Shown: positions 1,975-36,126 of the stretch, piece after piece
Layout: each line of letters begins with the position of its first letter
Position numbering within the stretch: the first letter of the stretch is position 1
Source of the DNA: Ignavibacteriota bacterium
GTDB lineage: Bacteria > Bacteroidota > Ignavibacteria > UBA10030 > SZUA-254
Direction: 5' to 3'
Length of the DNA stretch: 36,743 nucleotides
Assembly (NCBI GenBank): GCA_016209795.1
Contig: JACQVI010000070.1
Coordinates: forward strand, 1 to 36,743
The notes under the pieces: model-generated
What the model saw: only the letters and a program-made list of their open reading frames with translations
Databases searched by the model: none
Told to the model about the DNA's origin: nothing
Translations under genes and position numbers: made by a program

Positions 1975-2427
1975 CTAAGGAGATTTCTCCTCAATCTCTT
2001 GAGCCAGCCGTTTCTTTGACAACGTGTGAATGTAGAGTATCACGTTTCCTATCTCATCCTTGTTGAGTATATCCTTCCACCTCGGCATCTCAGGGGACTT
2101 GCTTACTGAAGCTCCACCGTTGCTGATGACATTAAAGAGATATTCATCGGATAGGCTCACCATATAAACACTGTCCGTATGATTCGCCGGCGGTGGATTC
2201 AGCGTGTAACTGTGGATTCCATCCCCTTCACCAGTGGTTCCGTGGCAGCCTGCACAGTAGCGTTGATACAATCGTTCACCGATAGCTTCTTGCCGTCGTG
2301 GACTGATTTCAGGAATCTGAGATTGTATCTTATCATCCGCCTGACATCCTACAAGTAGGAGAAGGCTGAAGATGGATAGCGGGCGGCAGATGGCAGATTG
2401 CAGTGTCTGTGAGATGCAAGTCATCAA
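1975..2427 (-). CDS. Monohaem c-type cytochrome lipoprotein (operon A)
   Basis: A 150-residue exported cytochrome c. A hydrophobic stretch ending LLLVGC looks like a lipobox, so the protein should be anchored to a membrane and face the periplasm. The haem site is CAGCH (about residue 58), followed by GTTGEGDG and a likely axial Met in SPEMPRW. Class I monohaem cytochromes shuttle electrons; here it probably serves the octahaem protein and the Rieske/cytochrome b core. It is the last gene of operon A and overlaps the octahaem gene by ATGA. The paralogue at 20972 has the same layout (haem, GEGDG, DSIYM/DSVYM-x-LSDE, MPxW). Confidence 0.88.
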   Translation of the reverse strand: MMTCISQTLQSAICRPLSIFSLLLLVGCQADDKIQSQIPEISPRRQEAIGERLYQRYCAGCHGTTGEGDGIHSYTLNPPPANHTDSVYMVSLSDEYLFNVISNGGASVSKSPEMPRWKDILNKDEIGNVILYIHTLSKKRLAQEIEEKSP

Positions 2428-4904
2428 TAACTCAAAAGATATTTCGTGATCAGTAAAGCTTCCTCATCAGACAAATTTAGAACAGGTTCAAGTGCGGCTG
2501 GGTCGAGTGCTTGAGGATTCTTGATCCACCGGAATATCCATCCAGCAGTTCTTCGTTCACGGATGTTCATATCGGTTGAGACTAACTCCGGACCCATTGT
2601 TCCTCCTTCGTAGTTAATTTGATGACATGATTGGCAGCGATACTTTTCGTAATACAGCTTTCGGCCTTTCTCAGTGTCTTCTTTGGAAATCTTTACATCC
2701 TTTAAGAAGTCTGAAGCAATGTCATTGTTTATCAGGACGGTTTTCATATAATTCGCGATGATATCAATCTCTTGTTCAGGAAGATTGAACTTCGGCATTC
2801 GCTCGACCAGCGTCGGTCGAAGAGTAGTTGGATTGCGGAAAAATTCTTTCAACCACTCTGCATTTGCTCTGCTGCCTTCATAAGAGAGATCAGGTGCTAA
2901 TGTGCCGCCCCTACTGTTAATTTTGTGACATGTCAGGCAATTTAATTCAGAAACGAGTCTGCCGAATTCACCTGGAGGAGTATAATTGCTTTCTGGTTGC
3001 CTGCTTCGAACAAACGGCTCAGGAGGATGTTCCTCAGTAAATCCCAAAAGGATTGTTGAAAGTGATTGAGCTTCACGGAGATTGAAACTGAAATCCGGCA
3101 TTTTTAATTGAATTCTCTCAGTCGAAAAAATTCTCGGATTCTGCAACTTGGTAACAACCCAGGCTTCCTTCATTCGAGGAATATCAATAACATCCCCAAA
3201 ATCAAAATTCTCAATTGGCTTGTCACCGAAGAAGGTCAAATCAGCGCCAACTTTTCCACCAACAGCTTCTTGCCCTACAGGGTCGTGGCATCCGAGACAA
3301 CCATAGTCGATAACAAGTTTTTCTCCACGCTTCACTTCGTCTGAAGAGCGAACCAGTACCATCTGTTCATCAGTATCTGTTGTCTCCGTGAGGCTTAAAA
3401 GGTAACTGACGATTAACTGGATTTCTTTATCTGTGAAGCGATATTGAGGCATCTTGGTATTGGGCTGATACGCACGTGGGTTTTTGATCCAGGCAAACAG
3501 CCATTCCGGACGTACTTTCTGTGCGACCTTGATGAGATCGGGAGCCAACGTACCGCCGGTTCCGTCAAGTGAATGGCAGCTAACACAGCGAGCGTAACCA
3601 AATAACTCTTTTCCTTTCTCAATCATCTCTTGAGTTGCTATCCTGAAACTGGGTTGTGAGGGAGATCGTTGTGTTAAACTCTTCTCAAGAAGATATGCCC
3701 TGATTGCTCGTGCTTCCTCTTCCGTGAAATGGAAGTTCGGCATCTTTGTTCTTGGGAGATATTCTTTTGGATTGAGTATCCATTTCAGCAGCCAGCTTGG
3801 CTTGACTTTTACTGCGATGTGATTCAAGGGCGGACCAATATTTGGCACTTTCACATAGCCTTCCACATTATGACAACCGAGACATCCCGAACTCTCAAAC
3901 AATTTTCTTCCATCGGTTAACGTTGGCGCTTCTGGAAAGTCAACTGCTTGATGGCATTTTCCACACAAGCGCTCCCGAACACCTTCCCCAAGTAATGGAT
4001 TGGGCCAAAACTCGGCGGCACCATGTGCTGCCCGTGCAGTGAGAGCAACACCTTGACCACCATGACAAGGCGTACACCCGAATTTTTCAACTGGGTGATA
4101 ATCGATGATGTACGAGTGTCTGGTAAACGGTTGCTTCTCGTTCTCAAATCCTTGTTGGTCGATACCTAAGTGACAAGTCATACAGCGTTCAACTCGGGCA
4201 ATGCGCCCGCCGAAATTATCGTAATCAAAATTTTCTAAAACAACTTGCTTCACTTCGATTGCTCTCTTTTTGACGGCTTCAACTTTCCGCTGCCATGCGG
4301 CAATATCTGCCCTCATCGCCATCAAACTATCTTTTAATTTTTCAACTCTCTCTCCAACCGCTCGTACTTTCACCTCGAGACTGTGTCGTTTTTTCTGGAC
4401 CAGAGCAATTTCACGCTCCAGAGTCGCTTTCTCCTGCTCAAGTCGATCCAAACGTAATTTCTCCTTATCTGCCGGTTTTTTCTTATGAACAGCAGTTTTA
4501 TACAGGTAGTACACTTCGTCAGATTCGCTTCGAGTGAATTGAAGTTGTTGGGAAAGTTCTGAAAGATGGAGCTGCACTTTTCCTAATTCGCTTGCTGCTT
4601 GCCAGTACTCTTCGTTCTGAAGCGCTGCCTCTGCAATGCGCAATTCCAGCTCAACGGCTGCATATCTCCCCTGAACTTCTGGTGTGTGAAACTCTTCCTC
4701 TGCCCCATGAAGTCCTTGTTCGGCTTTTGCTAATTCCAGTTGGTGAAACTCTTTCTGATGCTTTTTCCACGGTCGGCGAACCCATGTTTCATCGATGACT
4801 GCCCAGACGGTCGAGAATGCAAGTAATCCTGCGGCACAGACATAGATCAATCCGTATGATCTGATCTCAACAGGAATCGACCGACGTTTTTCCAGAATCT
4901 TCAT
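2424..4904 (-). CDS. Octahaem c-type cytochrome with N-terminal coiled coil (operon A)
   Basis: An 826-residue protein with one membrane anchor (residues 18-37), a charged heptad-rich region (about 45-220) likely to be coiled coil, then eight CXXCH sites at Cys 241, 277, 314, 341, 440, 536, 656 and 757. The first three lie in a compact module with HGGQG. The last five sit in cytochrome c-like modules with a W-x-NP-x-MPxF pattern giving Met ligands near 388, 485, 602 and 703. The fifth module reads LEPVLN and lacks that Met. It probably carries electrons between the Rieske/cytochrome b core and soluble carriers. The operon B homologue (22008) has the same eight haems but no coiled coil. The start directly abuts the ferredoxin stop. 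Confidence 0.88.
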   Translation of the reverse strand: MKILEKRRSIPVEIRSYGLIYVCAAGLLAFSTVWAVIDETWVRRPWKKHQKEFHQLELAKAEQGLHGAEEEFHTPEVQGRYAAVELELRIAEAALQNEEYWQAASELGKVQLHLSELSQQLQFTRSESDEVYYLYKTAVHKKKPADKEKLRLDRLEQEKATLEREIALVQKKRHSLEVKVRAVGERVEKLKDSLMAMRADIAAWQRKVEAVKKRAIEVKQVVLENFDYDNFGGRIARVERCMTCHLGIDQQGFENEKQPFTRHSYIIDYHPVEKFGCTPCHGGQGVALTARAAHGAAEFWPNPLLGEGVRERLCGKCHQAVDFPEAPTLTDGRKLFESSGCLGCHNVEGYVKVPNIGPPLNHIAVKVKPSWLLKWILNPKEYLPRTKMPNFHFTEEEARAIRAYLLEKSLTQRSPSQPSFRIATQEMIEKGKELFGYARCVSCHSLDGTGGTLAPDLIKVAQKVRPEWLFAWIKNPRAYQPNTKMPQYRFTDKEIQLIVSYLLSLTETTDTDEQMVLVRSSDEVKRGEKLVIDYGCLGCHDPVGQEAVGGKVGADLTFFGDKPIENFDFGDVIDIPRMKEAWVVTKLQNPRIFSTERIQLKMPDFSFNLREAQSLSTILLGFTEEHPPEPFVRSRQPESNYTPPGEFGRLVSELNCLTCHKINSRGGTLAPDLSYEGSRANAEWLKEFFRNPTTLRPTLVERMPKFNLPEQEIDIIANYMKTVLINNDIASDFLKDVKISKEDTEKGRKLYYEKYRCQSCHQINYEGGTMGPELVSTDMNIRERRTAGWIFRWIKNPQALDPAALEPVLNLSDEEALLITKYLLSY

Positions 4905-5183
4905 CTATCGTTCCCTTGGTACCATCACAATACATTCCCACGGGCACTCCTTTACACACAGTGTACAGCCAGTGCAAGGCTCTTCAATCACACGACACAC
5001 ATTTGCCTGAAGCTCCAGGTTGGGATTAGGAAGAACGACGATGCAATCAACTGGGCAGAACTCAATACACACTTCACAACCTGTGCATGTTTCTTCGTCG
5101 ATGAGTGCAATAAGTTTCGATTTTTTCTTGATAACGGTGCGCTGCTGTGATTGCGCCGCCTGTGTACTCTCACTTCCCATCAT
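4905..5183 (-). CDS. 2x[4Fe-4S] ferredoxin subunit (operon A)
   Basis: A 92-residue protein with two classic cluster motifs, C33-x2-C36-x2-C39-x3-C43 and C70-x2-C73-x2-C76-x3-C80, plus additional cysteines 47, 63 and 84. There is no signal peptide, so it should work on the cytoplasmic side. It overlaps the cytochrome b subunit IV gene by ATGA and abuts the octahaem gene, which points to a subunit or docking partner of the Rieske/cytochrome b complex. In operon B the ferredoxin role is instead carried by the C-terminal domains of a large FAD protein (26323). It may link a cytoplasmic low-potential pool to the quinone site; this is inference. Confidence 0.85.
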   Translation of the reverse strand: MMGSESTQAAQSQQRTVIKKKSKLIALIDEETCTGCEVCIEFCPVDCIVVLPNPNLELQANVCRVIEEPCTGCTLCVKECPWECIVMVPRER

Positions 5184-6037
5184 ATATTAAACCAAGGTGT
5201 TACCCACACATATTTGATGTTGAAAAAGATTCTAAGAAACATTTTCATCGGCAGTGCCGTCATCGTCAAGAATAAAAAAGCGATGATGACGTACCGCAGC
5301 AGACCTAAATTCTTCATGAGCTCTGCATGTTTCTTTTTCAGGTAGAGATAGAAGAAAACTCCAAGAGAATAGTATCCGAGCACTACCCCACCTCCAAAGA
5401 CCGATGACCAAAAGTAGGATCGAATACCAAAGAGATACGGAAGATCAACATTGGTTATGGCAACGATCCGATGCACATCCCACTCCTCCCACGGATAAAA
5501 GAAATACCAGCCTGGTCCTCGAAAAAACGTTCCGATAATGATGAGAGCAACCCAGAGCAAATAACCAAAACTGAAAATGAGGATCGCAGCCCTCCGCTGA
5601 CGAAAACTGTAATAGCCTGTTCCTTTTGGATTGAGATCAAGATATGGAATCGCCATAAGGCCGATAATGATGAATGTTGGCAGAACCACACCAGCAATCC
5701 AGGGATCGAAATAGACCAACATTTCTTGTAAGCCAAGAAAATACCATGGAGCCTTTGCAGGATTTGGTGTTTTGCTGGGATTAGCAAGTTCTTCGAGCGG
5801 TGCATCAATTGTAATTGACCAAACGGTCAAGATGACCATGATCAGAAGAGTTGCCAAAAACTCGATGCGTGTCAGATAGGGCCAGCAGTGGACTTTGTCG
5901 ATATTTCTGTTGACACCATACTTGTCATTTTTAACTGCTTGGCTGATACCGAGCCAATAGTAAAACAAGACAAGCAGCAGCATTCCAGCGATGGGAATGT
6001 TGTCTGGGCGTGTCAAGATGTGAAAGAACTGTTCCAT
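5180..6037 (-). CDS. Cytochrome b subunit IV-like (C-terminal half of cytochrome b), operon A
   Basis: A 285-residue integral membrane protein with about seven hydrophobic segments. After the first helix comes DAPLEELANPSKTPNPAK followed by APWYFLGLQE, the quinol-site loop of split cytochrome b proteins; the PEWY-equivalent position reads APWY. A second motif, GTFFRGPGW, follows. The pair of this gene and cytochrome b at 6467 makes a b6f-like split core. It is longer than the operon B paralogue (232 residues), with additional C-terminal membrane segments. A DoxX-family gene separates it from cytochrome b in this operon only. It overlaps the ferredoxin gene by ATGA. Confidence 0.9.
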   Translation of the reverse strand: MEQFFHILTRPDNIPIAGMLLLVLFYYWLGISQAVKNDKYGVNRNIDKVHCWPYLTRIEFLATLLIMVILTVWSITIDAPLEELANPSKTPNPAKAPWYFLGLQEMLVYFDPWIAGVVLPTFIIIGLMAIPYLDLNPKGTGYYSFRQRRAAILIFSFGYLLWVALIIIGTFFRGPGWYFFYPWEEWDVHRIVAITNVDLPYLFGIRSYFWSSVFGGGVVLGYYSLGVFFYLYLKKKHAELMKNLGLLRYVIIAFLFLTMTALPMKMFLRIFFNIKYVWVTPWFNI

Positions 6038-6049
6038 GGTCCAAAAACT

Positions 6050-6436
6050 TCATTGCAAACTCAGTGGCCACGGACATGAAAGCGCCAGCATCATCAACAC
6101 TGCACCGACAAGTGCAAGGTTCTTTGTGAAGTTAACCATCTCCATCATCTTGATCTGTGCATCTTCGACTTTCCAGAAATTGTGCATTGTGAATGAGACG
6201 GGAATCAGGGATGTAATGAGTAGTAGAATGCCAATATCGGGATAGACACCTGTCATGATACTCAAACCACCGAGCAAGAGCATGAAGCCTGTAACTACAA
6301 CGGCTGCTGATGGGAATGGCACTCCCTTCATTTTCGTATAATCCTTCATCATAGTAAAACGGAGAAAATGATTGAGTCCATTGAAGATGAAATAGCCGCC
6401 AAAGATTATTCTTCCGATGAGAAATAGTATCTCCAT
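6050..6436 (-). CDS. DoxX-family membrane protein
   Basis: A 128-residue protein with four predicted membrane helices. The N-terminus (IGRIIFGGYFIFNGLNHF) is the hallmark of DoxX-like proteins. Named after a thiosulfate:quinone oxidoreductase subunit, the family is broad and members often have other or unknown roles. It is wedged between the two halves of cytochrome b, with a good AAAGGA ribosome site, so it is made together with the complex. An assembly factor or an additional membrane subunit are both possible. Operon B has no counterpart. Confidence 0.8.
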   Translation of the reverse strand: MEILFLIGRIIFGGYFIFNGLNHFLRFTMMKDYTKMKGVPFPSAAVVVTGFMLLLGGLSIMTGVYPDIGILLLITSLIPVSFTMHNFWKVEDAQIKMMEMVNFTKNLALVGAVLMMLALSCPWPLSLQ

Positions 6437-6466
6437 ACGATTTTCCTTTCTTTGATACGGTGAGCT

Positions 6467-7234
6467 TTATTCGTGTTCAGGCGGACGAGAAATTCCACCA
6501 TCTTTCCTTACTCTCCAGAAATGCACAATCATAAAAGCCACGGCTAAAAGTGGCAAAGCGATACAATGTAAAACATAAAACCGCAATAGTGCAGGGGGTC
6601 CAACTTGTGTTCCGCCTAAGAGAAGAAATCGGATGTCGTTGTCAGCTTTCATTCCAAGTTCCGTGCCAAAAGGACCTTCATGACCAAGAAATGGCGTTGC
6701 TCGTGCCATATTAGTTCCAACGGTAATTGCCCACATGGCAAGTTGATCCCACGGTAAAAGATACCCCGTGAATGAAAGGAGAAGAGTCAAGACGAGCAGC
6801 ATAACTCCGACAACCCAATTGAATTCTCTTGGCGGTTTATATGACCCTGTCAGAAAAACACGCAGCATGTGAAGCCAGACGGTAATCACCATCAGATGTG
6901 CAGCCCATCGATGCATATTGCGGAGGAACATCCCGAACGGAACATCATGCTCGAGATACTTTATGTCTGCATACGCATATTCAGCCGTTGGGCGATAGTA
7001 GAACATGAGGATCACACCCGTCACAGTAAGAACGATGAACAAGAGAAAGGTAATGCCGCCCATCCCCCACGTGAAGCGGATGTCTGTGGCGTGTCGCCAT
7101 ACCGAGGTAGGATGCAGATGCAGAAAAACATTGCTTACAATCTGATGCATCCGGTTTGGTTTGGTATCCTTGTAACCGTGCCGAAATACCGACCGATATA
7201 TTTGTGACCGTTTAATTTTTTCCCAAGTGCTCAT
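6467..7234 (-). CDS. Cytochrome b, b6-type N-terminal half (operon A)
   Basis: 255 residues with four core membrane helices carrying two b haems. The ligands are His108 and His122 (14 apart) in helix B and His223 and His238 (15 apart) in helix D; the 15-residue spacing is the b6-type signature. Other conserved pieces are [29 protein letters not shown] and [10 protein letters not shown]. The protein forms the quinone-oxidising/reducing core with subunit IV and the Rieske protein. The ATG at 7234 is preferred because it overlaps the Rieske stop as ATGA; a start at 7267 would intrude 37 bases into that gene. Confidence 0.93.
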
Positions 7235-7788
7235 ATCTTTTTCAGAAATGACCCCGGCTTCCCCCACTCACCTCTTTCATACAGGAACTTCACACTCTTG
7301 TCTACGACCAGCTCACCATTTTCATTGAGCGTGATTTTTACTCGTTCAAGAGGACGAGGTGCCGGTCCTTCAAAGTTTATACCACTTAGATGAAAGCCAC
7401 TGCCATGGCAGGGGCACTTGAATTTATTTTCCGTCTCTAACCATCTGGGCGTACATCCTAAGTGCGTGCACACTGCCGACAATGCATAGAATCCCTCTTC
7501 CTCATGCACGACCCAAACTTGTTTTGATTTCAAGTACTTACTGCTGACTTCACCGAGAGCATATTCATCAGGGAAACCAGCCTTAAATACAGGAGCAGAT
7601 TCAAAGAGAACCCGTGGAAAGAAAAAACGAATTGTGCTAAGGATTGAAATTCCTAAAAAAACAAAAAAGGCAATCCACCCGGAAAGAGAAAGGAGATCAC
7701 GACGTGTGATCCACAATCCTCGTGTCTTGTCAACTGCGATCTCCTTCCGAAGAGGAGTAGTATGTTGCAACTCTTCTGTGTTTGCCAT
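7231..7788 (-). CDS. Rieske iron-sulfur protein (operon A)
   Basis: 185 residues: a twin-arginine-like stretch (ITRRDLLSL) before one membrane helix (about 37-56), then a Rieske domain with C107-T-H109-LGC112 and C125-P-C127-H128 holding a [2Fe-2S] cluster, and GPAPRPL after it. It would take electrons from quinol at the outer face of the membrane. The ATG at 7788 is preferred over an in-frame GTG at 7821. It sits upstream of cytochrome b, with an ATGA overlap. Compared with the operon B homologue it has a C-terminal extension ending in a run of Lys. Confidence 0.93.
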
Positions 7789-7839
7789 AATTTCTCGCAA
7801 GAAAAATATAGCTCGGAACACGTGTTCATGATCATATGG

Positions 7840-8505: not shown

Positions 8506-9891
8506 TTAGAATACAATCATTGAGTTGACTCGGAACTGTCTGAATGCTCTTTTTTCGCTTGGGTCAACTTCAGCACCACCGATCGTTCGCTTTTCATCGA
8601 TTCGAAATCTGCCCTCGACCGTGAACCGAATATTCGCACGGTAGAGTATGGTGATGTTGGGATTGATTTCCCAGTACTTATCACGATCGTCATCTCCTAA
8701 CTTCGATTGCGCATGATTTACACGAAGCACACCAATGAGCCACGGATAGAAAATGTAATCGACTTCGCCAAAATAGGCGGTGTGCTTGAGCTTCTTGGTG
8801 TCTCCGAAAGCATTCTCGTCATCACCAAAGATCACACCTCCCGTTAGTTCTAACCGATCGTACCCGCCGCGCAGATCAATGCCGAAGCGGTTGAAGTTAT
8901 TACCCCAACTCTTCGTGGTTGTAGTGGTTTTGATTTTGAATTTTGTCGGATCACCACCGCTGCCCGCTGTATCGACGGTCTGTGTTGTCGTGCTTGTAGA
9001 CTTACCGAAATGACCGTTATAGGCATAGACACCAAAAGTAACCGCATTGTCTACCCAGTTGTCGGTCTCTTTGAGTTCAGCATCTGCGCCAGAGCCATCC
9101 AGCCCCATTCCTCCAATCTTATAGGCAACTCGCCCAAAGGCATCTTTTTGATCTTTGAACGGTGTGGTTTTCCCTTCACCGTTAACAATACCGACGGCAT
9201 ATTCAAAGTTGCTTCCGAAGATACCGTTGATCTCAATGCCAGCCTGGTTATCTCGTGGACGCCAATCACCTGAAGCTCGATAATCGATTGTAATTGGACG
9301 GTCAAGAGTAATACGGTTTGCTTGCATGTAGCCGCTGGTGATGCCGGGCTCGAACCGACCCACCTTGATGTTCAATGCATCCTTTGGGCCGATGATGTCG
9401 TTGAACTGAAAGAAAAATCGCTGCATCCCAACTGCGTTTTGGCCGCCCTCGAAGAAGATCCATTCCCCAAATAGTCCAACATCATTTCCGAAAGCGCCGC
9501 CGAACAGGAGTTCAAGTTCATGCGGCATATCGAATCCAATTTTTTGACCGTCGGGTTTCAATGGATCATATGTGAGACGATTATGCACATACACCGCAAT
9601 GGGGAGGTTTGGGGGAATGACGCCGGGCCAAACAGCATCCGGGAACATTTCTTTCCATCCCTCAGCTCCCAAACTGACCGGCTCTTCCTTGATCAATTGG
9701 GCATCTCCTTTCGGCAGAACAAAACCATTCCGCCGAAATGCTTCACCAAAAGCATTGCGTTTCGGAATTGCGATATGACAGGTCGTGCAGCTTGTTTTGT
9801 ACTTGCGTGCAAATGCCGGGATACCATAGCTCTCATCCGGCACAATTAAAAGCACGACCGCAGCAAGTAAAACAGTAAGAAAGGTTTTCAT
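8506..9891 (-). CDS. Outer-membrane porin with N-terminal c-haem (Cyc2-like), operon A
   Basis: 461 residues: signal peptide (to about 23), then IPAFARKYKTSCTTCH with one haem site (C35, C38, H39), a P-x3-AFGEAFRRNGF continuation, and a long beta-strand-rich region ending in Phe, as in outer-membrane barrels. The order FAR-x4-CxxCH-x4-P-x4-FG-x2-F-x2-NG matches the pattern I recall for Cyc2, the fused cytochrome-porin of iron oxidisers, though similar proteins also occur in bacteria not known to oxidise iron. A Thr-rich loop (TTTTTKS) is peculiar to this copy. GGAGAG before the ATG at 9891 decides the start. It would move electrons across the outer membrane. Confidence 0.85.
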   Translation of the reverse strand: MKTFLTVLLAAVVLLIVPDESYGIPAFARKYKTSCTTCHIAIPKRNAFGEAFRRNGFVLPKGDAQLIKEEPVSLGAEGWKEMFPDAVWPGVIPPNLPIAVYVHNRLTYDPLKPDGQKIGFDMPHELELLFGGAFGNDVGLFGEWIFFEGGQNAVGMQRFFFQFNDIIGPKDALNIKVGRFEPGITSGYMQANRITLDRPITIDYRASGDWRPRDNQAGIEINGIFGSNFEYAVGIVNGEGKTTPFKDQKDAFGRVAYKIGGMGLDGSGADAELKETDNWVDNAVTFGVYAYNGHFGKSTSTTTQTVDTAGSGGDPTKFKIKTTTTTKSWGNNFNRFGIDLRGGYDRLELTGGVIFGDDENAFGDTKKLKHTAYFGEVDYIFYPWLIGVLRVNHAQSKLGDDDRDKYWEINPNITILYRANIRFTVEGRFRIDEKRTIGGAEVDPSEKRAFRQFRVNSMIVF

Positions 9892-9900
9892 ACAACTCTC

Positions 9901-9913
9901 CATATAAGTTTGT
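9901..9913 (-). promoter_or_regulatory. Leader motif shared by both haem-porin genes
   Basis: ACAAACTTATATG stands just upstream of the haem-porin in operon A and again at 30267-30279 in operon B, although the surrounding bases differ. It may be a conserved 5' leader or simply retained ancestry. Confidence 0.35.
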
Positions 9914-15912: not shown

Positions 15913-16075
15913 TTGCAATTTGAGATAACTGAAAAACAATTGAAGGACTTATTGAAAAATTGTGAATCACAGAAGATTGAGCACGATGCATGTTGGCATA
16001 CCAAATGGCAGGCGAATCCGGAGATGCCGTGTGATCCTGCCACTGTGCTCATAAAGAACAAATCACTATCTCCGA
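15913..16075 (+). other. Possible plus-strand gene fragment between the two kinase operons
   Basis: From a TTG at 15913 an open frame has protein-like composition for about 55 codons (EITEKQLKDLLKNCESQ, then HDACWHTKWQANP). It then runs antisense into the regulator at 16066. No ribosome site is seen and I do not recognise it. It may be a remnant, or chance. Confidence 0.2.
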
Positions 16076-20971: not shown

Positions 20972-21394
20972 TCACTCTGAATAACTGAATCTACGAATGT
21001 ATGACACAACATACTTTATTTCCTCTCTTTTTAACCTCCCTCCCCAAGTAGGCATAAGCATCGACCGGTTAACACCCCTTCCGCCCTGACTGATCGTTTC
21101 GACAATTCTTTCATCGCTCAGGGCGCTCATGTAGATGGAGTCCGTAAAGTTTCTGGGTTTCGGATCCAAATTAAATGCATTAAATCCATCACCTTTTCCT
21201 TCTTCACCATGGCACACCGCACAATACTTTTTATAGAGTTGTCTGCCTTGTCGCTCCTCGTAAGTAAGCGATTTGCTCGAGTCGCTTCCAGATGTCTGTT
21301 TCAGTGAAGTTGAATTCCTCCCTGAGCAGCAGATCAAACTCAACGACAATAAGATTGCCGGCAATATTTTAAAGTTTCGAAAACTAAAAAACAT
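20972..21394 (-). CDS. Monohaem c-type cytochrome lipoprotein (operon B)
   Basis: 140 residues with a signal peptide ending in a lipobox-like LSLICC, a haem site CAVCH (about residue 59) followed by GEEGKGDG, and a likely Met ligand in SMLMPTW. It is paralogous to 1975 in operon A, and both are the last genes of their operons. It should be a membrane-tethered periplasmic electron carrier for the octahaem protein. It is separated from the octahaem gene by a cNMP-binding protein gene, unlike in operon A where the two overlap. Confidence 0.88.
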   Translation of the reverse strand: MFFSFRNFKILPAILLSLSLICCSGRNSTSLKQTSGSDSSKSLTYEERQGRQLYKKYCAVCHGEEGKGDGFNAFNLDPKPRNFTDSIYMSALSDERIVETISQGGRGVNRSMLMPTWGGRLKREEIKYVVSYIRRFSYSE

Positions 21395-21452: not shown

Positions 21453-21932
21453 TTAAAATGACGGTACATTAAGTTCAATCTCTCTCACAAGCAGACCTTG
21501 AATCCGATTCATGCGGCTGCCAATAACTTTGGCCAAGTTCCCCATTAAGATATACCCCAGATGATGCTTTTTAGCACACACGGAAAGCACGTCTTCTCCT
21601 CTCATCTGCATTAACTCACTGTCTTCATCACAATATGCCGACAAAGTCAACTTTTGATGGGGCCTAACTAGGGCAGACCAGCCGAAAACACCTCCTGCCC
21701 CAATAATATCTACACCAATTTCCTCATCAGCATGGAGAACGGAAATCTGAAAACTAAGATGCACTTTGCCTGACCCCACAATGTAGAAATCCTCAGCACT
21801 GTCTCCCCGGCTGAAAATTTTCTCATTTTTTTTAAGTTTCACAATCTTGATTATTGTTGAAAGTTGTCTTAATTCCTTTGGTGTGAGCCCAGCGAAAAAG
21901 TTTATCTCACACAGCATCTTAGCATCAATCAT
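21453..21932 (-). CDS. Single-domain cyclic-nucleotide-binding (CRP-like) protein
   Basis: 159 residues with the cNMP-binding beta-roll: FFAGLTPKELRQL, then KKNEKIFSRGDSAEDFYIVGSG, and FGWSALVRP in place of the usual phosphate-binding cassette. A C-terminal helix follows, but there is no helix-turn-helix, so it should not bind DNA by itself. It lies inside operon B between two cytochrome genes, with a GAAAGG ribosome site, suggesting a sensor or regulatory subunit acting on the respiratory complex or on a partner protein. Operon A lacks it. The FGWSAL variant of the binding loop leaves its ligand uncertain. Confidence 0.8.
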   Translation of the reverse strand: MIDAKMLCEINFFAGLTPKELRQLSTIIKIVKLKKNEKIFSRGDSAEDFYIVGSGKVHLSFQISVLHADEEIGVDIIGAGGVFGWSALVRPHQKLTLSAYCDEDSELMQMRGEDVLSVCAKKHHLGYILMGNLAKVIGSRMNRIQGLLVREIELNVPSF

Positions 21933-22007: not shown

Positions 22008-23951
22008 TCACTCAAGCGTCATAAGATACGCTGTTAGCGCCTCTGCCTCCTCGTCCGATAAATTATTGTTAGGCTCAATTGATTCTGGCTTAAATGCTTG
22101 CGGGTTTTTCAGCCAGTGAAAAATCCAACCGGCTTTGAGACGAGAACCAAGGTTGTCGAGCGCCGGCCCGACGTACCCACCCTTGAGTTTGATTTGGTGA
22201 CATGCCTGACAGCCGTACTTCTCGAAGTATAGAATCTTTCCTTTTGCGATTTTGGTCTCGTCGATCTTGATGTCACGCTCCAGACTATCTGCGAGAAATA
22301 CCTGCTCCATATAATCAACTAACACTTTGCTCTCTCTCTCTGATAAAAACAGATTCGGCATCCGTTCGGTTAAGATTGGTCGAAGTGAATACGGGACTTT
22401 GAAGTATTTTTCAATCCATTTTCTCTGAGCCTGGCTTGCTTCGAGTGTCAGATCCGTTGCCACCGATCTTCCCTGACCGAACATGGTATGACAGCCAAAA
22501 CAGGCCAAATCATCCACCAGCTTACCAAAATCTCCTTGAGGTTTAAACGTGCTTGATGGTTTAGGATAGATTTTGAATTCCTCGGGCACTGCGTCACTGA
22601 TGTTGCCAAGTAATGCGACTGCTATGGACTGTGCTTCTTCATCACTGAATTCATAGTTTGGCATTTTCATCGAACTCGAGAAGACACGGGGAGCTTTTAA
22701 TTTGGTGAAGAGATATGAAGGAAGCGACTGCTCAATGTTCGACTTGCCGAAATCGATCTCATAGAGTTTCTTGCTGCCGATGAAGGTGAGTTCCGGTGCC
22801 ATCTCTTCTGCCTTCTTCATTCCGCCAAGTTCATGACATCCGCTGCAATTGTATTTTTTGAATAGTGCCAAACCCTTTTCGTAGTACGCTGGATCAGGAG
22901 TATGAGGGGGTGTAGTGCCTTCTTCACCTTCTGTGAATTCACTTTGCATGTAAGCAACGACTCCTGCAAGTTCAGTTTCATTGAAATGATACCTCGGCAT
23001 CTCAACACCAGGTTGAAGACGTTTAGGATTCTTGATATAGTTATACAACCACTTCACGTCGACCTTATTAGCAACCTTACCCAGATCAGTTGCCACGTAT
23101 CCACCTTTCCCGTTAATAAGATGACAACTAATACAGCGTGCTTCACGAAATCGAATCGAGCCAAGTTCAATCAACCTTTCTCTCTGTGCATCAGGTGAAT
23201 TCATGAGCAGAGTCGGGAGTGGATCTAACATAGCCCCTTTAGGAAACGTTTTAAATGTCATCAAAAAATCAGCGAGGATGTTTGCTTCGTCATCCAATAG
23301 AAGAAAGTTCGGCATTTTTGTCTTTAAGAAGTACTCTTTTGGATTTTTCAGCCAATTCACTAACCACATGCGGTTCACCTTCGCACCTATCCCATCCAAG
23401 CTTGGCACCCATTGCTTTGGTAACCCATCGATCTTATGGCAGCCCACACAGTTGGTTTCTTCAATAAGTTTTCGACCCGAGGTGAGAATCGGCGCTTGAG
23501 GAACCTGATTTTCTTTATGACATTTGGCGCACGAGGCTTCCATGTATTCACGAGGAAAGATAGGTCTATCCCAATACTTGACTTTACCAATCGATTCTTT
23601 GAACGTTGTTGAAAGACCCTGACCTTCGTGGCACATTGTGCAGCCAAACTCTTCAAAGTCGTGGTAGATGTGTGGATGGATGCGAAATGGCTGCTCAGCT
23701 TCTTGAAGCGCCTTTTCTTTCAGACCAAGATGACATGTTACACAGCGGTCGATTCTGTCGAGCTTTCTTACCCAGAGCTGCTTGATGCCGATTTCGGCAG
23801 GCTTAATGCGTTGTGGTAATTCCTTGATGAGATCATTGAATTTGTATTGATACCATTTCCACTCTCGGAAAAAATCTTTCAAGGGAGAGATGGCAAGCAC
23901 AACAAGAAAGACAATACTGGAGGCGGCAAAATATATTCTAAGTTTACCCAT
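22008..23951 (-). CDS. Octahaem c-type cytochrome without coiled coil (operon B)
   Basis: 647 residues with an N-terminal membrane anchor (about 7-22) and eight CXXCH sites at Cys 70, 104, 141, 168, 273, 369, 484 and 581. The layout equals the operon A protein: a triple-haem N-terminal module with CHEGQGLS, then five cytochrome c-like modules with W-x-KNP-x-MPxF patterns (Met near 213, 318, 430 and 531). Again the last module lacks Met at the expected place (EPNNNLS). The roughly 180-residue coiled coil of the A version is absent, which accounts for the length difference. Likely the main electron-transfer subunit attached to the Rieske/cytochrome b core. Confidence 0.9.
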   Translation of the reverse strand: MGKLRIYFAASSIVFLVVLAISPLKDFFREWKWYQYKFNDLIKELPQRIKPAEIGIKQLWVRKLDRIDRCVTCHLGLKEKALQEAEQPFRIHPHIYHDFEEFGCTMCHEGQGLSTTFKESIGKVKYWDRPIFPREYMEASCAKCHKENQVPQAPILTSGRKLIEETNCVGCHKIDGLPKQWVPSLDGIGAKVNRMWLVNWLKNPKEYFLKTKMPNFLLLDDEANILADFLMTFKTFPKGAMLDPLPTLLMNSPDAQRERLIELGSIRFREARCISCHLINGKGGYVATDLGKVANKVDVKWLYNYIKNPKRLQPGVEMPRYHFNETELAGVVAYMQSEFTEGEEGTTPPHTPDPAYYEKGLALFKKYNCSGCHELGGMKKAEEMAPELTFIGSKKLYEIDFGKSNIEQSLPSYLFTKLKAPRVFSSSMKMPNYEFSDEEAQSIAVALLGNISDAVPEEFKIYPKPSSTFKPQGDFGKLVDDLACFGCHTMFGQGRSVATDLTLEASQAQRKWIEKYFKVPYSLRPILTERMPNLFLSERESKVLVDYMEQVFLADSLERDIKIDETKIAKGKILYFEKYGCQACHQIKLKGGYVGPALDNLGSRLKAGWIFHWLKNPQAFKPESIEPNNNLSDEEAEALTAYLMTLE

Positions 23952-23984: not shown

Positions 23985-24683
23985 TCAGTAGATTCCTTCC
24001 CAGGGCCACGTCCAACTCCATTCTGGACCTCGGAACATTGTGCCGATAGCTGTTAAGATGACGACAATAATGACAAACCACGTCATGATCCACCACGAAA
24101 GTGGTCGAGTGTCAAGCCAACTGACGAAACCAACTTCTTTCTTTGAGAAATACGGAATGAGCATACATGCGGTCACAATCAATGTTGGAATGAGCATAGC
24201 ATATACCTTGAACATTAAAAGGATAAAGGATACCATAGCCATGACAATGATAAGCACAAGGAACGTTTGCTTCCTGTGTTCCTTCCAAAGCCCTTCCCGC
24301 TTGATGTTTATTCGAAAGTATGGGATTACTATTAAAGCAATGACAGCAAGGGCAGGAAGAATTACACCGCCAACGACAGGTGGAAAATAATGCAGCAGCT
24401 CCTGCAGGCCAAGAAAATACCACGGGGCTTTCGCAGGGTTCGGTGTGTGTTCAGGGTTTGCAATCCATTCGAGTGGAGCGTCAACGAGCAGTGAGACGAT
24501 GGCGAGAACGATAACCATGATCTCGAAGGCAATAATTTCTATTATCACGAGGTTCGGAAACGTCATCACCATCTCGTCATCGGCCTTTTTTACCCTGGCA
24601 GCCGTTCGACCCTTAATGAACGCTATCCGTTTTGGAACTTTCTTGACATCAACAGATTCTTCAACTTTGAAATCTTTGTCCAT
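23985..24683 (-). CDS. Cytochrome b subunit IV-like (operon B)
   Basis: 232 residues. A charged cytoplasmic N-terminus (about 45 residues) precedes the first helix, then DAPLEWIANPEHTPNPAK and APWYFLGLQELLHYF, the quinol-site loop with APWY where b6f proteins have PEWY. Further helices lead to GTMFRGPEW near the C-terminus. It completes the split cytochrome b with 24724. It is shorter than the A paralogue, lacking the C-terminal helices beyond FRGP. The upstream gap contains a GATTNNN spacer. Confidence 0.9.
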   Translation of the reverse strand: MDKDFKVEESVDVKKVPKRIAFIKGRTAARVKKADDEMVMTFPNLVIIEIIAFEIMVIVLAIVSLLVDAPLEWIANPEHTPNPAKAPWYFLGLQELLHYFPPVVGGVILPALAVIALIVIPYFRINIKREGLWKEHRKQTFLVLIIVMAMVSFILLMFKVYAMLIPTLIVTACMLIPYFSKKEVGFVSWLDTRPLSWWIMTWFVIIVVILTAIGTMFRGPEWSWTWPWEGIY

Positions 24684-25807: not shown

Positions 25808-26326
25808 TTACACTTTCAAAATTATGTCTTCGCCAACCGGTGATCCCCTGTCGACAACGAGCTGCCCTTGCTCATCCAACATCATGGAAAATCTCGGCAA
25901 TGGTTTTGGCGCAGGACCATCAACAACCTTTCCATCCTTATCGAACTTACTGCCATGACAGGGACAGGCTATGATGCCATCTTCCGACTTCCAGTTTGCG
26001 ATGCAGCCAAGATGTGTGCAAATAGCGGAGAGGGCATAGAAATATCCTTCCTTCGCCCTCATAATAAAGACCTTCTGCTCTTTGTTGAGTGTGACTGAGC
26101 CTGGTGGATAGTTCTCTGGTAAACCAGCTTTAAATTTTAATGAAGGTTCAAGCAAGACATTGGGTGAAAGAAATTGTGCAGTCAAAACGACACTCCCGAC
26201 TGTGGCGATGCCAATAGCTCCACTACCAAGGATTTCAAGAAAGTAGCGACGGGAGAGAAGTTCAGTTTCTTTCTTTTCTTTTTTGGATTCATCGTCATAA
26301 TTTTTCCCTTCTGAATCACCAATCAT
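25808..26326 (-). CDS. Rieske iron-sulfur protein (operon B)
   Basis: 172 residues: a charged N-terminus, one membrane helix (about 33-51) preceded by SRRYFLE, and a Rieske domain with C103-T-H105-LGC108 and C121-P-C123-H124, followed by DGPAPKPL. The ATG at 26326 overlaps the stop of the FAD oxidoreductase gene (ATGA). A longer frame to 26416 exists but would overlap that gene by about 90 bases. It should take electrons from quinol, or give them to quinone in reverse operation, on the outer membrane face. Confidence 0.93.
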   Translation of the reverse strand: MIGDSEGKNYDDESKKEKKETELLSRRYFLEILGSGAIGIATVGSVVLTAQFLSPNVLLEPSLKFKAGLPENYPPGSVTLNKEQKVFIMRAKEGYFYALSAICTHLGCIANWKSEDGIIACPCHGSKFDKDGKVVDGPAPKPLPRFSMMLDEQGQLVVDRGSPVGEDIILKV

Positions 26327-28209
26327 AAAACAGGCATAGTCTCCGAAACGGTGTATCCCTCCATGGTAATGCATCCGACGGGACAGCGCATCGCACATAA
26401 GCCGCAGCGGATGCAAACGTTTTCATCTTTGATCATAACAGCACCAAGAGACGTTTCTGTTTCCCCTGTAAGAACAACATCATATTCTTTTTCAAGTTCT
26501 TCAATCATTGATTGATCGGCATCGACCCGATCGAGTGCAACAAGCTCAATACAGGTCTCAGGGCAAATATCCACACATCCACCGCAGAGAATGCACTCCG
26601 TTCCGGCTTCTTCGCCCTTTGGCTCAAAGATTGTATTAACCCAGCAGTGGAGACAACGAGACGCTTCCTCACGAGCTTGTGCTTCCGTGTATCCAAGTTC
26701 GACCTGTGCCACTCCAATGCGCCGGTCAATTGCGAGTGTTGGAATGGGAACACGTTGTTTCTTCTCGTAGCCCCACTCACGGTTGTAGTGTTTCTTAGCG
26801 TACACAATGATTTCAACATCACGATCACCGAACTCCAGCTCGATTCCCTCCACATCTTTTCCCATGAGATATCGATGAATAGATTGTGCGGCTTTCTTTC
26901 CGTTGGCTATAGCGTCGATGGCGTTACGAGGACCGAACGAAACATCTCCGCCTGCAAAGATGCCGGGTGCAGTTGTGGCAAGTGTTTGTGGGTCAACTTT
27001 GATAGTGTTGCGTGGAGTGATCTCAATTCCATCTTCAGGTCGAATCCACGACAAATCGGATGTCTGTCCGATTGCCATAATAACTGTATCGGCTTCCATT
27101 CTCTTCTCTGTTGCTGGAGCAAATTTGGGGTTGAATCGACCTTGCTCATCGAAAACTGAAACACAGTCAATTGTCTCAAAGCCCATAACCTTGCCATCTC
27201 TCCCGAGGATTCTGCTGGGACCTTTTCGGGGATGGATTTGAATGCGTTCCTCAAACGCCTCCTCGATTTCCTCCTTCGAAGCAGGCATCTCGTGCCAGTC
27301 TTCGAGACAGACCATGTGGACTTCTTTTGCACCAAAACGGACAGCCGAACGGGCGACGTCGAGTGCTTCGGCAACTTCGGTCACATGACCGACTTCAACT
27401 TTTTCCTGTCGTGCAGCCGTTCGAGCGACATCAATCGCTACGTTCCCACCACCGATCACGATGACTTTATTTCCTAACTCTACTCGATAGCCAAGATTGA
27501 CATTCAGGAGAAAATCAACTGCTCGAAACACACCATCCAACTCAACTCCTTCAATCCGTAAGTCACGACTCTTGTGAGCACCGATTGCGATGAAGAAGGC
27601 ACGATAACCTTGCTTTTTGAGATCGCCGATTGTAAAATCACGACCGATGGCAGAGTTCAGTGTAAGTTCAACTCCGAGGCTGAGGATAGCGTTGACCTCA
27701 AGCCGGATCAGTTCACGAGGGAGACGGTACTCCGGAACTCCGAGTCTTAGCATTCCTCCAGCAACGGACTGTGCTTCAAACACCGTTACTTCATAGCCAA
27801 GCAGAGCAAGATCGTGAGCGCACGATAATCCGGCTGGACCAGCACCGATAACGGCAATTTTGATTCCATTCTTTCGGACTGTCTTTCCAAAGACCTCTTT
27901 CAGCTTTTCGAGATCAAGCATACTTTCGACGCCGTAGCGTTCACACACGAATCGCTTCAGCGCACGGATGGCAATGGGTTGATCAAGCTTTCCACGCCGG
28001 CATGCAGGCTCACAGAGGGCAGCACAGATACGACCGCAAATTGACGCAAATGGGTTTGGACGACGAGCAACGTGGTAGGCTTCTCTGTACCGACCTTCTT
28101 CGATCAGCGCAACATATCGCCCTGCTTCCGTATGCACGGGACATGCTGCCATGCAAGGAAAGTTGGAATCAAGCCACTCGAGATTAACAAATTCAAGTTG
28201 TTTCGCCAT
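26323..28209 (-). CDS. GltD-like FAD/NAD(P) oxidoreductase with N- and C-terminal Fe-S domains
   Basis: 628 residues. N-terminal Cys motifs (C19, C23, C58, C62, C66, C70) match the Fe-S domain of glutamate synthase small-subunit-like proteins. An FAD site is seen at 122-127 (GAGPAG) and a pyridine-nucleotide site at 253-256 (GGGNVA). Two C-terminal [4Fe-4S] motifs begin at C539 and C599. About 24 additional residues separate ARTAARQ (after the nucleotide site) from the FGAKEVHMV strand. No glutamate synthase large subunit is near. Its place before the Rieske gene suggests a cytoplasmic NAD(P)(H)-reactive arm of the complex. NAD(P) oxidoreductase-like subunits have been described with anammox Rieske/cytochrome b complexes, from memory. 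Direction of electron flow cannot be read from sequence. Confidence 0.9.
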   Translation of the reverse strand: MAKQLEFVNLEWLDSNFPCMAACPVHTEAGRYVALIEEGRYREAYHVARRPNPFASICGRICAALCEPACRRGKLDQPIAIRALKRFVCERYGVESMLDLEKLKEVFGKTVRKNGIKIAVIGAGPAGLSCAHDLALLGYEVTVFEAQSVAGGMLRLGVPEYRLPRELIRLEVNAILSLGVELTLNSAIGRDFTIGDLKKQGYRAFFIAIGAHKSRDLRIEGVELDGVFRAVDFLLNVNLGYRVELGNKVIVIGGGNVAIDVARTAARQEKVEVGHVTEVAEALDVARSAVRFGAKEVHMVCLEDWHEMPASKEEIEEAFEERIQIHPRKGPSRILGRDGKVMGFETIDCVSVFDEQGRFNPKFAPATEKRMEADTVIMAIGQTSDLSWIRPEDGIEITPRNTIKVDPQTLATTAPGIFAGGDVSFGPRNAIDAIANGKKAAQSIHRYLMGKDVEGIELEFGDRDVEIIVYAKKHYNREWGYEKKQRVPIPTLAIDRRIGVAQVELGYTEAQAREEASRCLHCWVNTIFEPKGEEAGTECILCGGCVDICPETCIELVALDRVDADQSMIEELEKEYDVVLTGETETSLGAVMIKDENVCIRCGLCAMRCPVGCITMEGYTVSETMPVL

Positions 28210-28260: not shown

Positions 28261-28854
28261 TCACTTCTTTATCTCGAAATTCGCTTCAACTTCTCCTGAT
28301 TCAGATACCGTGACTTCCTTTGAATCACCCTTGAGCTTCTCATGCCAGATCTTCAGGGTATACTTCCCGGACGGCACATTCTTTATTGAATAACTACCAT
28401 CTTTAGCACTGACGGCATAATACGGTGTTTCAAGAACAAGGATGTACGCCTCCATCTCGGGATGGACATTGCACAGCATCACTGCGTTACAACCCGGGTT
28501 TTTGAACGTGTATGAACGAGTCTGCCCTGTGGGCCAGGTACCGAGATTGAATTTTTCTGCACATTGATTTGGCGAAAAGACATTATGCATAACATTGTCA
28601 CTGTTCAAATACTTCACAGTCGTGCCTGCAACGATGGGAAGTACGTGAGGGATAAAGACGAGATTCTTTTGATCCATAACTACTGGTTCTTTGGGCGGTT
28701 CGAACTTTTTACCCGAAATCGAGTCGATATAGATAACAGCATCGCCGCTGTGCTTTGCTCCTTTGGCTTTCACTTTCCCTTTGATGTCACCTGCGTAAGA
28801 ACCACTCGCCAGACAAACAGATAGACCGAGTAATACCATGAAAAAGTGTTTCAT
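28261..28854 (-). CDS. Periplasmic cupredoxin-like copper protein (operon B)
   Basis: 197 residues, signal peptide (cleavage near SYAG, residue 21), then a cupredoxin-like domain with His90 (MHNVFSP), Cys128, His131 and Met134 (CNVHPEM), all four expected type 1 copper ligands. It ends with a short beta domain (GSYSIKNVPSGKYTLKIWHE). Two additional Cys (98 and 122), absent from the A paralogue, could form a disulfide. Likely carries electrons between the haem-porin encoded just before it and the inner-membrane complex. GAAAGG precedes the ATG. Confidence 0.85.
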   Translation of the reverse strand: MKHFFMVLLGLSVCLASGSYAGDIKGKVKAKGAKHSGDAVIYIDSISGKKFEPPKEPVVMDQKNLVFIPHVLPIVAGTTVKYLNSDNVMHNVFSPNQCAEKFNLGTWPTGQTRSYTFKNPGCNAVMLCNVHPEMEAYILVLETPYYAVSAKDGSYSIKNVPSGKYTLKIWHEKLKGDSKEVTVSESGEVEANFEIKK

Positions 28855-29003: not shown

Positions 29004-30254
29004 CTAAATCCCGAAATTCATTTGGAGAACAAACGTATCATTGTTCTTGTTTGCTTCATCTAAAAACTTTTTGAATTCAAGAATGAACTTGATGTTTGCG
29101 CGAGCCATAAATGTAATTCCAGGAATGACAGCATTCACCGGCTTCACAGCATCGATGTCCGTGTCCTTATCTTCCCACTCATAACGTACAAGTCCTATCA
29201 GCCATGGATATAACACATAATTCCCCTGCACATAATACGCCATTGACTTTCTGTCCGTGAGATTGGGGATTTTTGAATTCATCAGCATCAGCGCACCGTT
29301 AGCGATGAACCTGTCATACCAGAAATCTAAATCGCCACCGAACAGTGTAAAATCTTCATCGTCTGCACCGGTTTTCGACGCTGTTCCTTTGTAGAAATAT
29401 CCACCGAGGGTCAGTGAATTATCAATGTAGAATTCAGACTTCTCACTTGCCCCTGCTTCGGCACCGCCAATTTCACCAAGCCCACCGATCTTGTACGTTG
29501 CCTTTCCGTAGAAATCTTTTTGAGGATTCATGTCTGTCAATCCTTGTCCATTCACAATACCGAAGCGATAGGTGAATCCACCACGCTCATCAGCGCCATT
29601 GCCAGCACCCCAGACCTCGAGTCCCACGTGGTCATCGCGAAAGCGCCAGCCGTTGCGGCTTCTGAAGCTTGCCATGTTGTAGTGGTTTCTTGTCAGTCGT
29701 GAGTGGGTCGGTGTCGGGTCGGCATGGACCATTCCAGCACGAATGTGGAACGCCGGACTGTAGTCGAATTGCAAAGCGAAGGGGAATGCGATTTCGGTTT
29801 CATTGTCTTCATTCTCGACCTCTATCTCACCGAAAAACGAAAAATCCTCACCCATCGTCCCACCGTATAGCACTTCAATCTCATGAGGTATCTCCAGACT
29901 CCACTTAACATCACTGATTGCAGCATACTCGATGCGGCCGATTGCCCAGATTGCCAGCGGTGAGGTTCCGGGAATATCGCTTGGCCAAATTGCGTCCGGC
30001 CATACTTTCTTGTATGCCTCAGATCCCAAACTCACCGGTTCTTCCTTTGTCATTTCGGGGTCAGTTCCTGCAGGATAGCGATAACCATTGTTCTTAAACG
30101 CCTTTCCAAAGCCATTGAGCATCGGTGCAGCATAATGACACGTGCTGCAGCTTGTCTTATACTTCCGAGAAAACGATGGGATGCCCCAGCTTTGCTCGTT
30201 GAAGAACATGAGCAGGCAACCGATCATTATGAAACCGTTGACCAAATATTTCAT
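29004..30254 (-). CDS. Outer-membrane porin with N-terminal c-haem (Cyc2-like), operon B
   Basis: 416 residues: signal peptide (to about 24), IPSFSRKYKTSCSTCH with haem at C36/C39/H40, P-x-LNGFGKAFKNNGY, then a conserved KEEPVSLGSEAYKKVWPDAIWP-type segment shared with the A paralogue, and a beta-strand-rich barrel ending ...MNFGI. The N-terminal pattern matches the fused cytochrome-porin (Cyc2) class better than the A copy does, because LNGFG-x2-FK-x2-GY is kept. It probably passes electrons through the outer membrane; the electron partner outside is unknown. GAAAGG lies eight bases before the ATG. Confidence 0.85.
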   Translation of the reverse strand: MKYLVNGFIMIGCLLMFFNEQSWGIPSFSRKYKTSCSTCHYAAPMLNGFGKAFKNNGYRYPAGTDPEMTKEEPVSLGSEAYKKVWPDAIWPSDIPGTSPLAIWAIGRIEYAAISDVKWSLEIPHEIEVLYGGTMGEDFSFFGEIEVENEDNETEIAFPFALQFDYSPAFHIRAGMVHADPTPTHSRLTRNHYNMASFRSRNGWRFRDDHVGLEVWGAGNGADERGGFTYRFGIVNGQGLTDMNPQKDFYGKATYKIGGLGEIGGAEAGASEKSEFYIDNSLTLGGYFYKGTASKTGADDEDFTLFGGDLDFWYDRFIANGALMLMNSKIPNLTDRKSMAYYVQGNYVLYPWLIGLVRYEWEDKDTDIDAVKPVNAVIPGITFMARANIKFILEFKKFLDEANKNNDTFVLQMNFGI

Positions 30255-31300: not shown

Positions 31301-31396
31301 TGTTCATTTTCCTTTAGGTTGATGTGTGCGCTGAAGACCGATGAGGGACCGTCTCTATTATGATGAATGATGTGGGGGCATTGGGCATCTAATTCG

Positions 31397-36110: not shown

Positions 36111-36126
36111 TGGTTTTCCTTTACTG

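What the first reader, a model, noticed from the sequence alone, without database searches (positions are those of the whole stretch)
26323..28209. NAD(P)-type flavoprotein built into a Rieske/cytochrome b operon
A GltD-like protein with FAD, dinucleotide and several Fe-S sites overlaps the Rieske gene (ATGA) and has no glutamate synthase partner. This suggests a complex able to couple quinone/cytochrome chemistry to NAD(P)(H), perhaps by reverse electron transport or bifurcation. Operon A has only a small ferredoxin at the equivalent functional place, so the two complexes may run uphill and downhill routes.
Basis: partly seen in the sequence, partly recalled or inferred. Interest (0 to 1): 0.8.

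Follow-up and report, generated by a model that had tools for sequence, protein, structure and literature searches.

The report
NAD-linked flavoprotein in Rieske/cytochrome-b complex operon
A bacterium carries a membrane electron-transfer complex of the cytochrome b6f type with an extra cytoplasmic protein that should exchange electrons with NAD(H); similar complexes were proposed for anammox bacteria, but here they turn up as a separate, NAD-type version in at least 11 bacterial phyla, next to different respiratory partners.

Summary
ORF 26323-28209 (-, 628 aa) is a GltD/Nfn/DsrL-type FAD/NAD(P)/Fe-S flavoprotein whose stop overlaps the Rieske start (ATGA); no convincing glutamate synthase large subunit was found in the genome. 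Order of genes: Cyc2-like cytochrome-porin, copper-protein-like protein, flavoprotein, Rieske, cytochrome b, subunit IV, octaheme cytochrome c. The pairing is not local: 71 of the 80 best homologues from other genomes have a Rieske gene within 1.5 kb (11 named phyla), and five of the rest lie on truncated contigs. In the trees it groups with these, not with free-standing GltD/Nfn proteins. The kind is known: Kuenenia Kuste4569-4574 and Kustd1480-1485, proposed to make NAD(P)H by bifurcation; I recovered both and matched published residue numbers. The window protein is a different variant: no NADP-binding YRR motif (CLE instead; Glu303 in 86/86 of its clade), an insert in the NAD domain, and a cytochrome b without the heme-cN cysteine. 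Of the 80 loci, 21 have a Cyc2-like porin and 11 others NosZ; none both. Best reading: cytoplasmic NAD(H) module of a menaquinol-bifurcating complex. Subunit status is likely; direction of electron flow is untested.

The parts
26323..28209 (-). FAD/NAD(P)/Fe-S flavoprotein, 628 aa: N-terminal Fe-S domain (Cys 19,23,58,62,66,70; Lys85), FAD domain, NAD domain with an insert after GGGNVA and CLED in place of YRR, C-terminal 2x[4Fe-4S] domain
25808..26326 (-). Rieske Fe-S protein, 172 aa, start overlaps the flavoprotein stop (ATGA); cluster motifs CTHLGC / CPCHGSKF (Ser present, Phe instead of Tyr, as in Kustd1480)
   Evidence: comparison with PMC12954380
25437..25796 (-). 119-aa protein with two CxxC...C...C repeats; among the loci searched only in L093 and, more weakly, L095
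24724..25440 (-). b6-type cytochrome b; His42 in FLHVHP aligns with Kuste4571 His43 / Kustd1481 His62; no cysteine for covalent heme cN
23985..24683 (-). subunit IV-like protein, 5 hydrophobic segments, APWYF at the quinol site
22008..23951 (-). octaheme cytochrome c with an N-terminal hydrophobic anchor
21453..21932 (-). cyclic-nucleotide-binding-domain protein, possible regulator
20972..21394 (-). monoheme cytochrome c
28261..28854 (-). secreted protein with weak plastocyanin-type (Copper-bind, below cut-off) and carboxypeptidase-regulatory-like matches; a similar gene lies in 25 of 80 homologous loci
29004..30254 (-). Cyc2-like fused monoheme cytochrome-porin (PSFSRKY + CSTCH + PML; 16 predicted strands)
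   Evidence: motif from PMC8406198
4905..5183 (-). operon A (comparison): 92-aa 2x[4Fe-4S] ferredoxin, candidate cytoplasmic electron partner of the second complex
2424..4904 (-). operon A (comparison): octaheme cytochrome c with an N-terminus like that of the Kuenenia L166 protein
5180..7821 (-). operon A (comparison): subunit IV (5180-6037), DoxX-like (6050-6436), cytochrome b (6467-7267), Rieske (7231-7821)
8506..9903 (-). operon A (comparison): second Cyc2-like cytochrome-porin, passes the PXFAR[QK][TY] motif

Best explanation
The protein is the cytoplasmic (N-side) NAD(H)-reacting subunit of a b6f-like Rieske/cytochrome b complex with an octaheme cytochrome c on the outer side. Proposed working: menaquinol is oxidised at the outer quinol site; one electron goes to the Rieske centre, the octaheme cytochrome and a periplasmic partner; the other goes through the b hemes, possibly a further heme held by cytochrome b His42, and the flavoprotein's Fe-S clusters to FAD, which reduces NAD+. 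Shown here: gene anatomy, conserved synteny, clade membership and the NAD-type signature. Inferred: physical complex, extra heme, electron path, and NAD+ reduction as the main direction. That it is a subunit of the complex I put at about 0.85; the whole mechanism at the figure below.
For: Rieske within 1.5 kb in 71 of 80 database homologues and in 8 of 8 phylum homologues; the exceptions are five truncated contigs (L099, L101, L112, L114, L124), one locus with a broken flavoprotein frame but an adjacent Rieske (L093), and three with Rieske/b genes further off in the locus (L086, L097, L098). In the careful tree the window clade (37 rows) is separated from GltD, Nfn and the Kuenenia proteins at 100/98. 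ATGA overlap. NAD signature: position 303 is Glu in 86/86 clade members and Arg in 21/23 outgroup proteins; NfnB Y310-R311-R312 hold the NADP phosphate, and DsrL enzymes without YRR prefer or require NAD(H) (PMC7596348). The His thought to bind an extra heme in the anammox models is at the same place, and Arg608 matches Kustd1483 Arg550. For Kuste4569-4574 the paper reports co-migration of all subunits, citing earlier work.
Against: No biochemistry for this clade. The cytochrome b lacks the heme-cN cysteine that both Kuenenia proteins have, so the published electron path cannot apply unchanged. The extra-heme His also occurs in complexes without a flavoprotein (operon A, core operons), so it is not specific evidence. 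If a Cyc2-like porin (Cyc2 about +208 mV, PMC8406198) were the only high-potential partner, bifurcation from menaquinol would be near break-even without a proton motive force (my arithmetic). NuoD homologues on two contigs suggest complex I, so NADH can be handled otherwise. My AlphaFold model of the flavoprotein was poor (mean pLDDT 55.7) and was not used.
Confidence: 0.5

Rival explanations
1. Same complex, opposite direction: NADH donates electrons through FAD, Fe-S clusters and the b hemes to menaquinone and/or the c-type cytochromes, i.e. an NADH:quinone/cytochrome c oxidoreductase serving respiration to N2O, O2 or an extracellular acceptor.
For: NAD(H)-type signature. Clade members lie beside NosZ (15 loci) or CcoN-like oxidase genes (5 loci), acceptors normally fed by NADH-driven chains. 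Geothrix carries the operon with a cytochrome-porin. DsrL enzymes work in both directions in vitro (PMC7596348).
Against: NADH oxidation by this route would waste energy where complex I exists (argument made for Kuenenia in PMC12954380; NuoD homologues present here). The Rieske Ser/Phe pair matches Kustd1480, whose measured potential is high.
Confidence: 0.3
2. Reverse electron transport: the Cyc2-like porin brings in electrons from outside (for example Fe(II)), the octaheme cytochrome passes them to the Rieske/b complex run backwards, and proton motive force lifts them to NAD+.
For: Cyc2-like cytochrome-porin upstream in the window and relatives; 21 of 80 database loci have one by a relaxed motif.
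Against: The function of distant (Cluster 3) Cyc2 homologues is described as most uncertain (PMC8406198). RuBisCO was not found in this genome; the ATP citrate lyase search had no working control, so a need for reverse transport is not shown. The NosZ-linked members have no such porin beside them.
Confidence: 0.15
3. The flavoprotein is an independent soluble enzyme (GltD-, Nfn- or DsrL-like) that merely sits in the operon.
For: Family-level similarity to NfnB and GltD; DsrL and the KGOR-linked protein L012 show that the architecture works with other partners.
Against: Pairing conserved across 11 named phyla while other neighbours change; no glutamate synthase large subunit found; separate clade.
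Confidence: 0.05

Closest known systems
Kuenenia stuttgartiensis Kustd1480-1485 (Rieske/cytochrome b complex with putative NAD(P) oxidoreductase Kustd1483)
   Same: Rieske, b6-like cytochrome b, five-helix subunit IV, octaheme cytochrome c and a flavoprotein; Rieske Ser/Phe pair; extra-heme His; flavoprotein Arg550/Arg608.
   Different: Kustd1483 is 566 aa with YRR and no insert, and lies between cytochrome b and subunit IV; the cytochrome b has the heme-cN cysteine; it falls outside the window clade. Window operon A resembles this complex but has a ferredoxin and no flavoprotein gene.
Kuenenia Kuste4569-4574
   Same: Order Rieske, flavoprotein, cytochrome b, subunit IV, multiheme cytochrome; subunit co-migration reported (PMC12954380).
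   Different: YRR and no insert in Kuste4570, hexaheme plus HAO-like octaheme cytochromes, Rieske Ser/Tyr pair, outside the window clade.
DsrL-1 (NAD(H):acceptor oxidoreductase of sulfur oxidisers)
   Same: Same domain order; no YRR; DsrL-1A also has an insertion of about 32 aa in the NAD(P) site (PMC7596348).
   Different: Partner is DsrAB, not a Rieske/b complex. No DsrL sequence was in my tree, so the relationship is untested.
NfnB / GltD family
   Same: Fer4_20 plus Pyr_redox_2 core.
   Different: Most outgroup rows lack the C-terminal two-cluster domain; YRR present, no NAD-domain insert, separate part of the tree.

Membership tests
Rieske/cytochrome b complex with NAD(P) oxidoreductase subunit (anammox type) | flavoprotein gene next to Rieske, b6-like cytochrome b, subunit IV and multiheme cytochrome c | tested here: met
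Rieske/cytochrome b complex with NAD(P) oxidoreductase subunit (anammox type) | flavoprotein orthologous to Kuste4570 or Kustd1483 | tested here: inconclusive
   Both lie outside the window clade (100/98), but one clade of all Rieske/b-linked forms is not rejected, p-AU 0.069
Rieske/cytochrome b complex with NAD(P) oxidoreductase subunit (anammox type) | heme cN cysteine in cytochrome b | tested here: not met
   Gly at the aligned position in both window proteins, Cys in both Kuenenia proteins
Rieske/cytochrome b complex with NAD(P) oxidoreductase subunit (anammox type) | subunits form one complex | not testable with these tools
   no multimer prediction or biochemistry available
Glutamate synthase small subunit (GltD) / NfnB | large-subunit or NfnA partner, YRR, core without C-terminal ferredoxin domain | tested here: not met
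   no partner gene recognised in the window
DsrL-1 | dsrAB partner and DsrL domain order | tested here: inconclusive
   Domain order matches; the genome was not searched for dsrAB and no DsrL sequence was in the tree
Cyc2 (gene 29004-30254) | PXFAR[QK][TY] motif, CXXCH, 16-strand porin, at least 365 aa | tested here: inconclusive
   PSFSRKY differs by one residue; CSTCH, 16 predicted strands and porin fold matches are met; the counterparts in L034 and at window 8506-9903 pass the motif
NCBIfam PRK12771 | score above curated cut-off | tested here: not met
   440.5 against 516 bits

The most novel reading that the evidence does not exclude
A widespread, unrecognised class of respiratory complex that joins NAD(H) chemistry to a Rieske/cytochrome b core, present in at least 11 bacterial phyla and attached to exchangeable partners (N2O reductase, heme-copper oxidase, or a Cyc2-like outer-membrane cytochrome-porin), so that NADH can be made directly from menaquinol.
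Probability: 0.4. Interest if true: 0.8.

Novelty: new variant of a known kind. Interest (0 to 1): 0.58.

Why it matters
The anammox proposal that a Rieske/cytochrome b complex can make NAD(P)H is still unproven and rests on organisms that are hard to work with. If the same device exists in many phyla, including Geothrix and Anaeromyxobacter, it can be tested in more accessible strains. The NAD-type signature predicts a different cofactor from that of the two Kuenenia proteins, which a simple assay can test.

Tried and rejected
AlphaFold of the flavoprotein with 9 sequences: mean pLDDT 55.7, not used. Search for DsrL in genomes of the phylum: the regions fetched showed no recognisable DsrL, so DsrL could not be placed in the tree. 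Plasmid tblastn: only matches under 60% identity (33-36% for the top five), not followed. Genome searches for NosZ and ATP citrate lyase: no hit, but the controls did not ring either, so absence is not shown. Extra-heme His as a marker of flavoprotein-linked complexes: rejected, also present in operon A and core operons. Promoter scan: 20 found against 17.2 expected, uninformative; one 10-of-12 match lies just upstream of the gene that starts at 30254. Paper searches for earlier reports of NAD-linked Rieske/b complexes outside anammox found none in the open library; I read only parts of five papers and subscription journals were not searchable, so novelty claims are limited to that.

Full report
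1. ORF 26323-28209 (-) encodes 628 aa with an N-terminal Fe-S domain (Fer4_20), a Pyr_redox_2 core and a C-terminal ferredoxin-like domain. Its stop codon overlaps the Rieske start as ATGA. No glutamate synthase large subunit is in the window, and the genome-wide search gave only a short 26.9-bit partial hit.

2. Surroundings. On the minus strand the order is: response regulator (30295-30687), Cyc2-like cytochrome-porin (29004-30254), secreted copper-protein-like protein (28261-28854), flavoprotein, Rieske, 119-aa Cys-rich protein, cytochrome b, subunit IV, octaheme cytochrome c, cNMP-binding protein, monoheme cytochrome c. Three relatives of the same order or family (L034, L214, L215) keep the block from porin to octaheme cytochrome. 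The 119-aa protein was seen only in the window and L093, with a weaker match in L095.

3. Not a local accident. The genome-contig scan kept 80 loci by protein similarity alone. 71 have a Rieske gene within 1.5 kb on the same strand, 70 a cytochrome b within 3.5 kb, 57 a cytochrome with four or more hemes within 5.5 kb. The nine others are L086, L097 and L098 (Rieske/b genes further off), L093 (flavoprotein frame broken, Rieske adjacent) and five truncated contigs, L099, L101, L112, L114 and L124. 70 of the 80 records carry a phylum name, 14 phyla in all, Acidobacteriota the largest (38); Chloroflexota, Eiseniibacteriota and Calditrichota are represented only by truncated loci, so the pairing itself is seen in 11 named phyla.

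4. Partner classes. Counting the 8 phylum loci too, 15 loci carry NosZ, 5 a CcoN-like oxidase and 22 a Cyc2-like cytochrome-porin (relaxed motif), and no locus carries both NosZ and the porin. Three more (L094, L099, L115) show weaker oxidase-like genes beside them (COX1 confirmed for L115).

5. Trees. In the 136-row quick tree the window sits in an 84-row clade, 79 of them Rieske-adjacent by my automatic label; 23 rows without Rieske (GltD- and Nfn-like, KGOR-linked and longer forms) group apart. In a careful 57-row tree with the NAD-domain insert left out, the window clade of 37 is separated at 100/98, and Kustd1483 and Kuste4570 fall outside it. One origin of all Rieske/b-linked forms costs 11.2 log units and is not rejected (p-AU 0.069). 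A window-type complex also occurs in a Scalindua genome (L071), so anammox bacteria can have this type too.

6. Check of the reference complexes. L166 and L212 come from one unnamed 4.41 Mb genome. Published residue numbers match: Ser114/Phe116, His62, Arg266/Lys267, Arg550 for Kustd1480-1485; His43, Arg247, Arg511 for Kuste4569-4574, and a Ser/Tyr pair offset by six, which I put down to the start codon chosen. I therefore treat them as the Kuenenia loci.

7. Cofactor sites. NfnB holds the NADP phosphate with YRR, and DsrL enzymes lacking YRR prefer or require NAD(H) (PMC7596348). At the aligned place the window clade has mostly (C/S)LE: Glu303 in 86/86, against Arg in 21/23 outgroup proteins; both Kuenenia proteins have YRR. 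Some other anammox-order proteins outside the window clade also have LE, so the motif has changed more than once. The span from Gly255 to Met308 has median 55 residues in the clade and 30 in outgroups; the extra residues follow the GGGNVA motif. DsrL-1A has a comparable insertion. Mapping NfnB ligands as listed in PMC7596348 onto the window (my reading): proximal cluster Cys23, Cys62, Cys66 with Lys85 where NfnB has Glu117, which agrees with the anammox paper's remark on a cluster with three cysteines and a nearby lysine; distal cluster Cys19, Cys70 and perhaps Cys58. The C-terminal domain has eight cysteines for two clusters, plus Cys519, Cys522 and Cys553.

8. The membrane part. Cytochrome b is b6-like. 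His42 matches the His proposed to bind an extra heme in the anammox models, but it is also present in operon A and in core operons without a flavoprotein. The cysteine that would bind heme cN is absent in both window cytochromes b and present in both Kuenenia proteins. Subunit IV has five hydrophobic segments by a crude scale, as do the Kuenenia proteins.

9. Operon A. Kuenenia L166 proteins score 412 bits (cytochrome b), 389 (octaheme protein) and 327 (subunit IV) against operon A, but operon A has a DoxX-like gene between cytochrome b and subunit IV and a ferredoxin after subunit IV. In two relatives (L209, L210) a ferredoxin-like ORF lies just upstream of the Rieske gene of a core operon; in L209 and L211 an oxidase-like gene follows that operon. 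A further cytochrome b of this type is on contig C21 of the same genome.

10. The porin. The window gene 29004-30254 has CSTCH, PSFSRKY (one residue off the Cyc2 motif) and 16 predicted strands with porin matches. It is a Cyc2-like protein of unproven function.

11. Mechanism. I favour menaquinol bifurcation with NAD+ reduction (0.5). With potentials quoted in PMC12954380 (menaquinone -70 mV, NAD(P) -320 mV), a partner near +208 mV leaves about 28 mV in hand, while N2O or O2 would leave far more. This fits best for the NosZ- and oxidase-linked members and is weakest for the porin-linked ones, including the window. NADH oxidation (0.3) and pmf-driven reverse transport (0.15) remain open.

Noticed in passing
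29004-30254 and 8506-9903: Two Cyc2-like fused cytochrome-porin genes, one upstream of each Rieske/b operon; the second passes the published motif, the first misses by one residue.
   Followed up: partly
25437-25796: 119-aa protein with two CxxC...C...C repeats between Rieske and cytochrome b, absent from the L034, L214 and L215 operons.
   Followed up: partly
6689-6873 / 24886-25070 and 5709-5808 / 24385-24484: Operons A and B share 70-74% identical DNA in cytochrome b and subunit IV, so they look like diverged duplicates.
   Followed up: no
1636-1924 / 16061-16349: 289-nt direct repeat, 80% identical.
   Followed up: no
31209-31302 / 36019-36112: 94-nt repeat, 82% identical; one copy covers the start of the small gene 30947-31300.
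   Followed up: no
L208 (contig C21, 4542 bases): A third Rieske/cytochrome b operon of the same genome, with a cytochrome b 77% identical to operon A's.
   Followed up: partly
L165 and L172: About 700-aa flavoproteins of two anammox-order genomes with CLES in place of YRR, no recognised Rieske gene near, and extra C-terminal sequence in L165.
   Followed up: no
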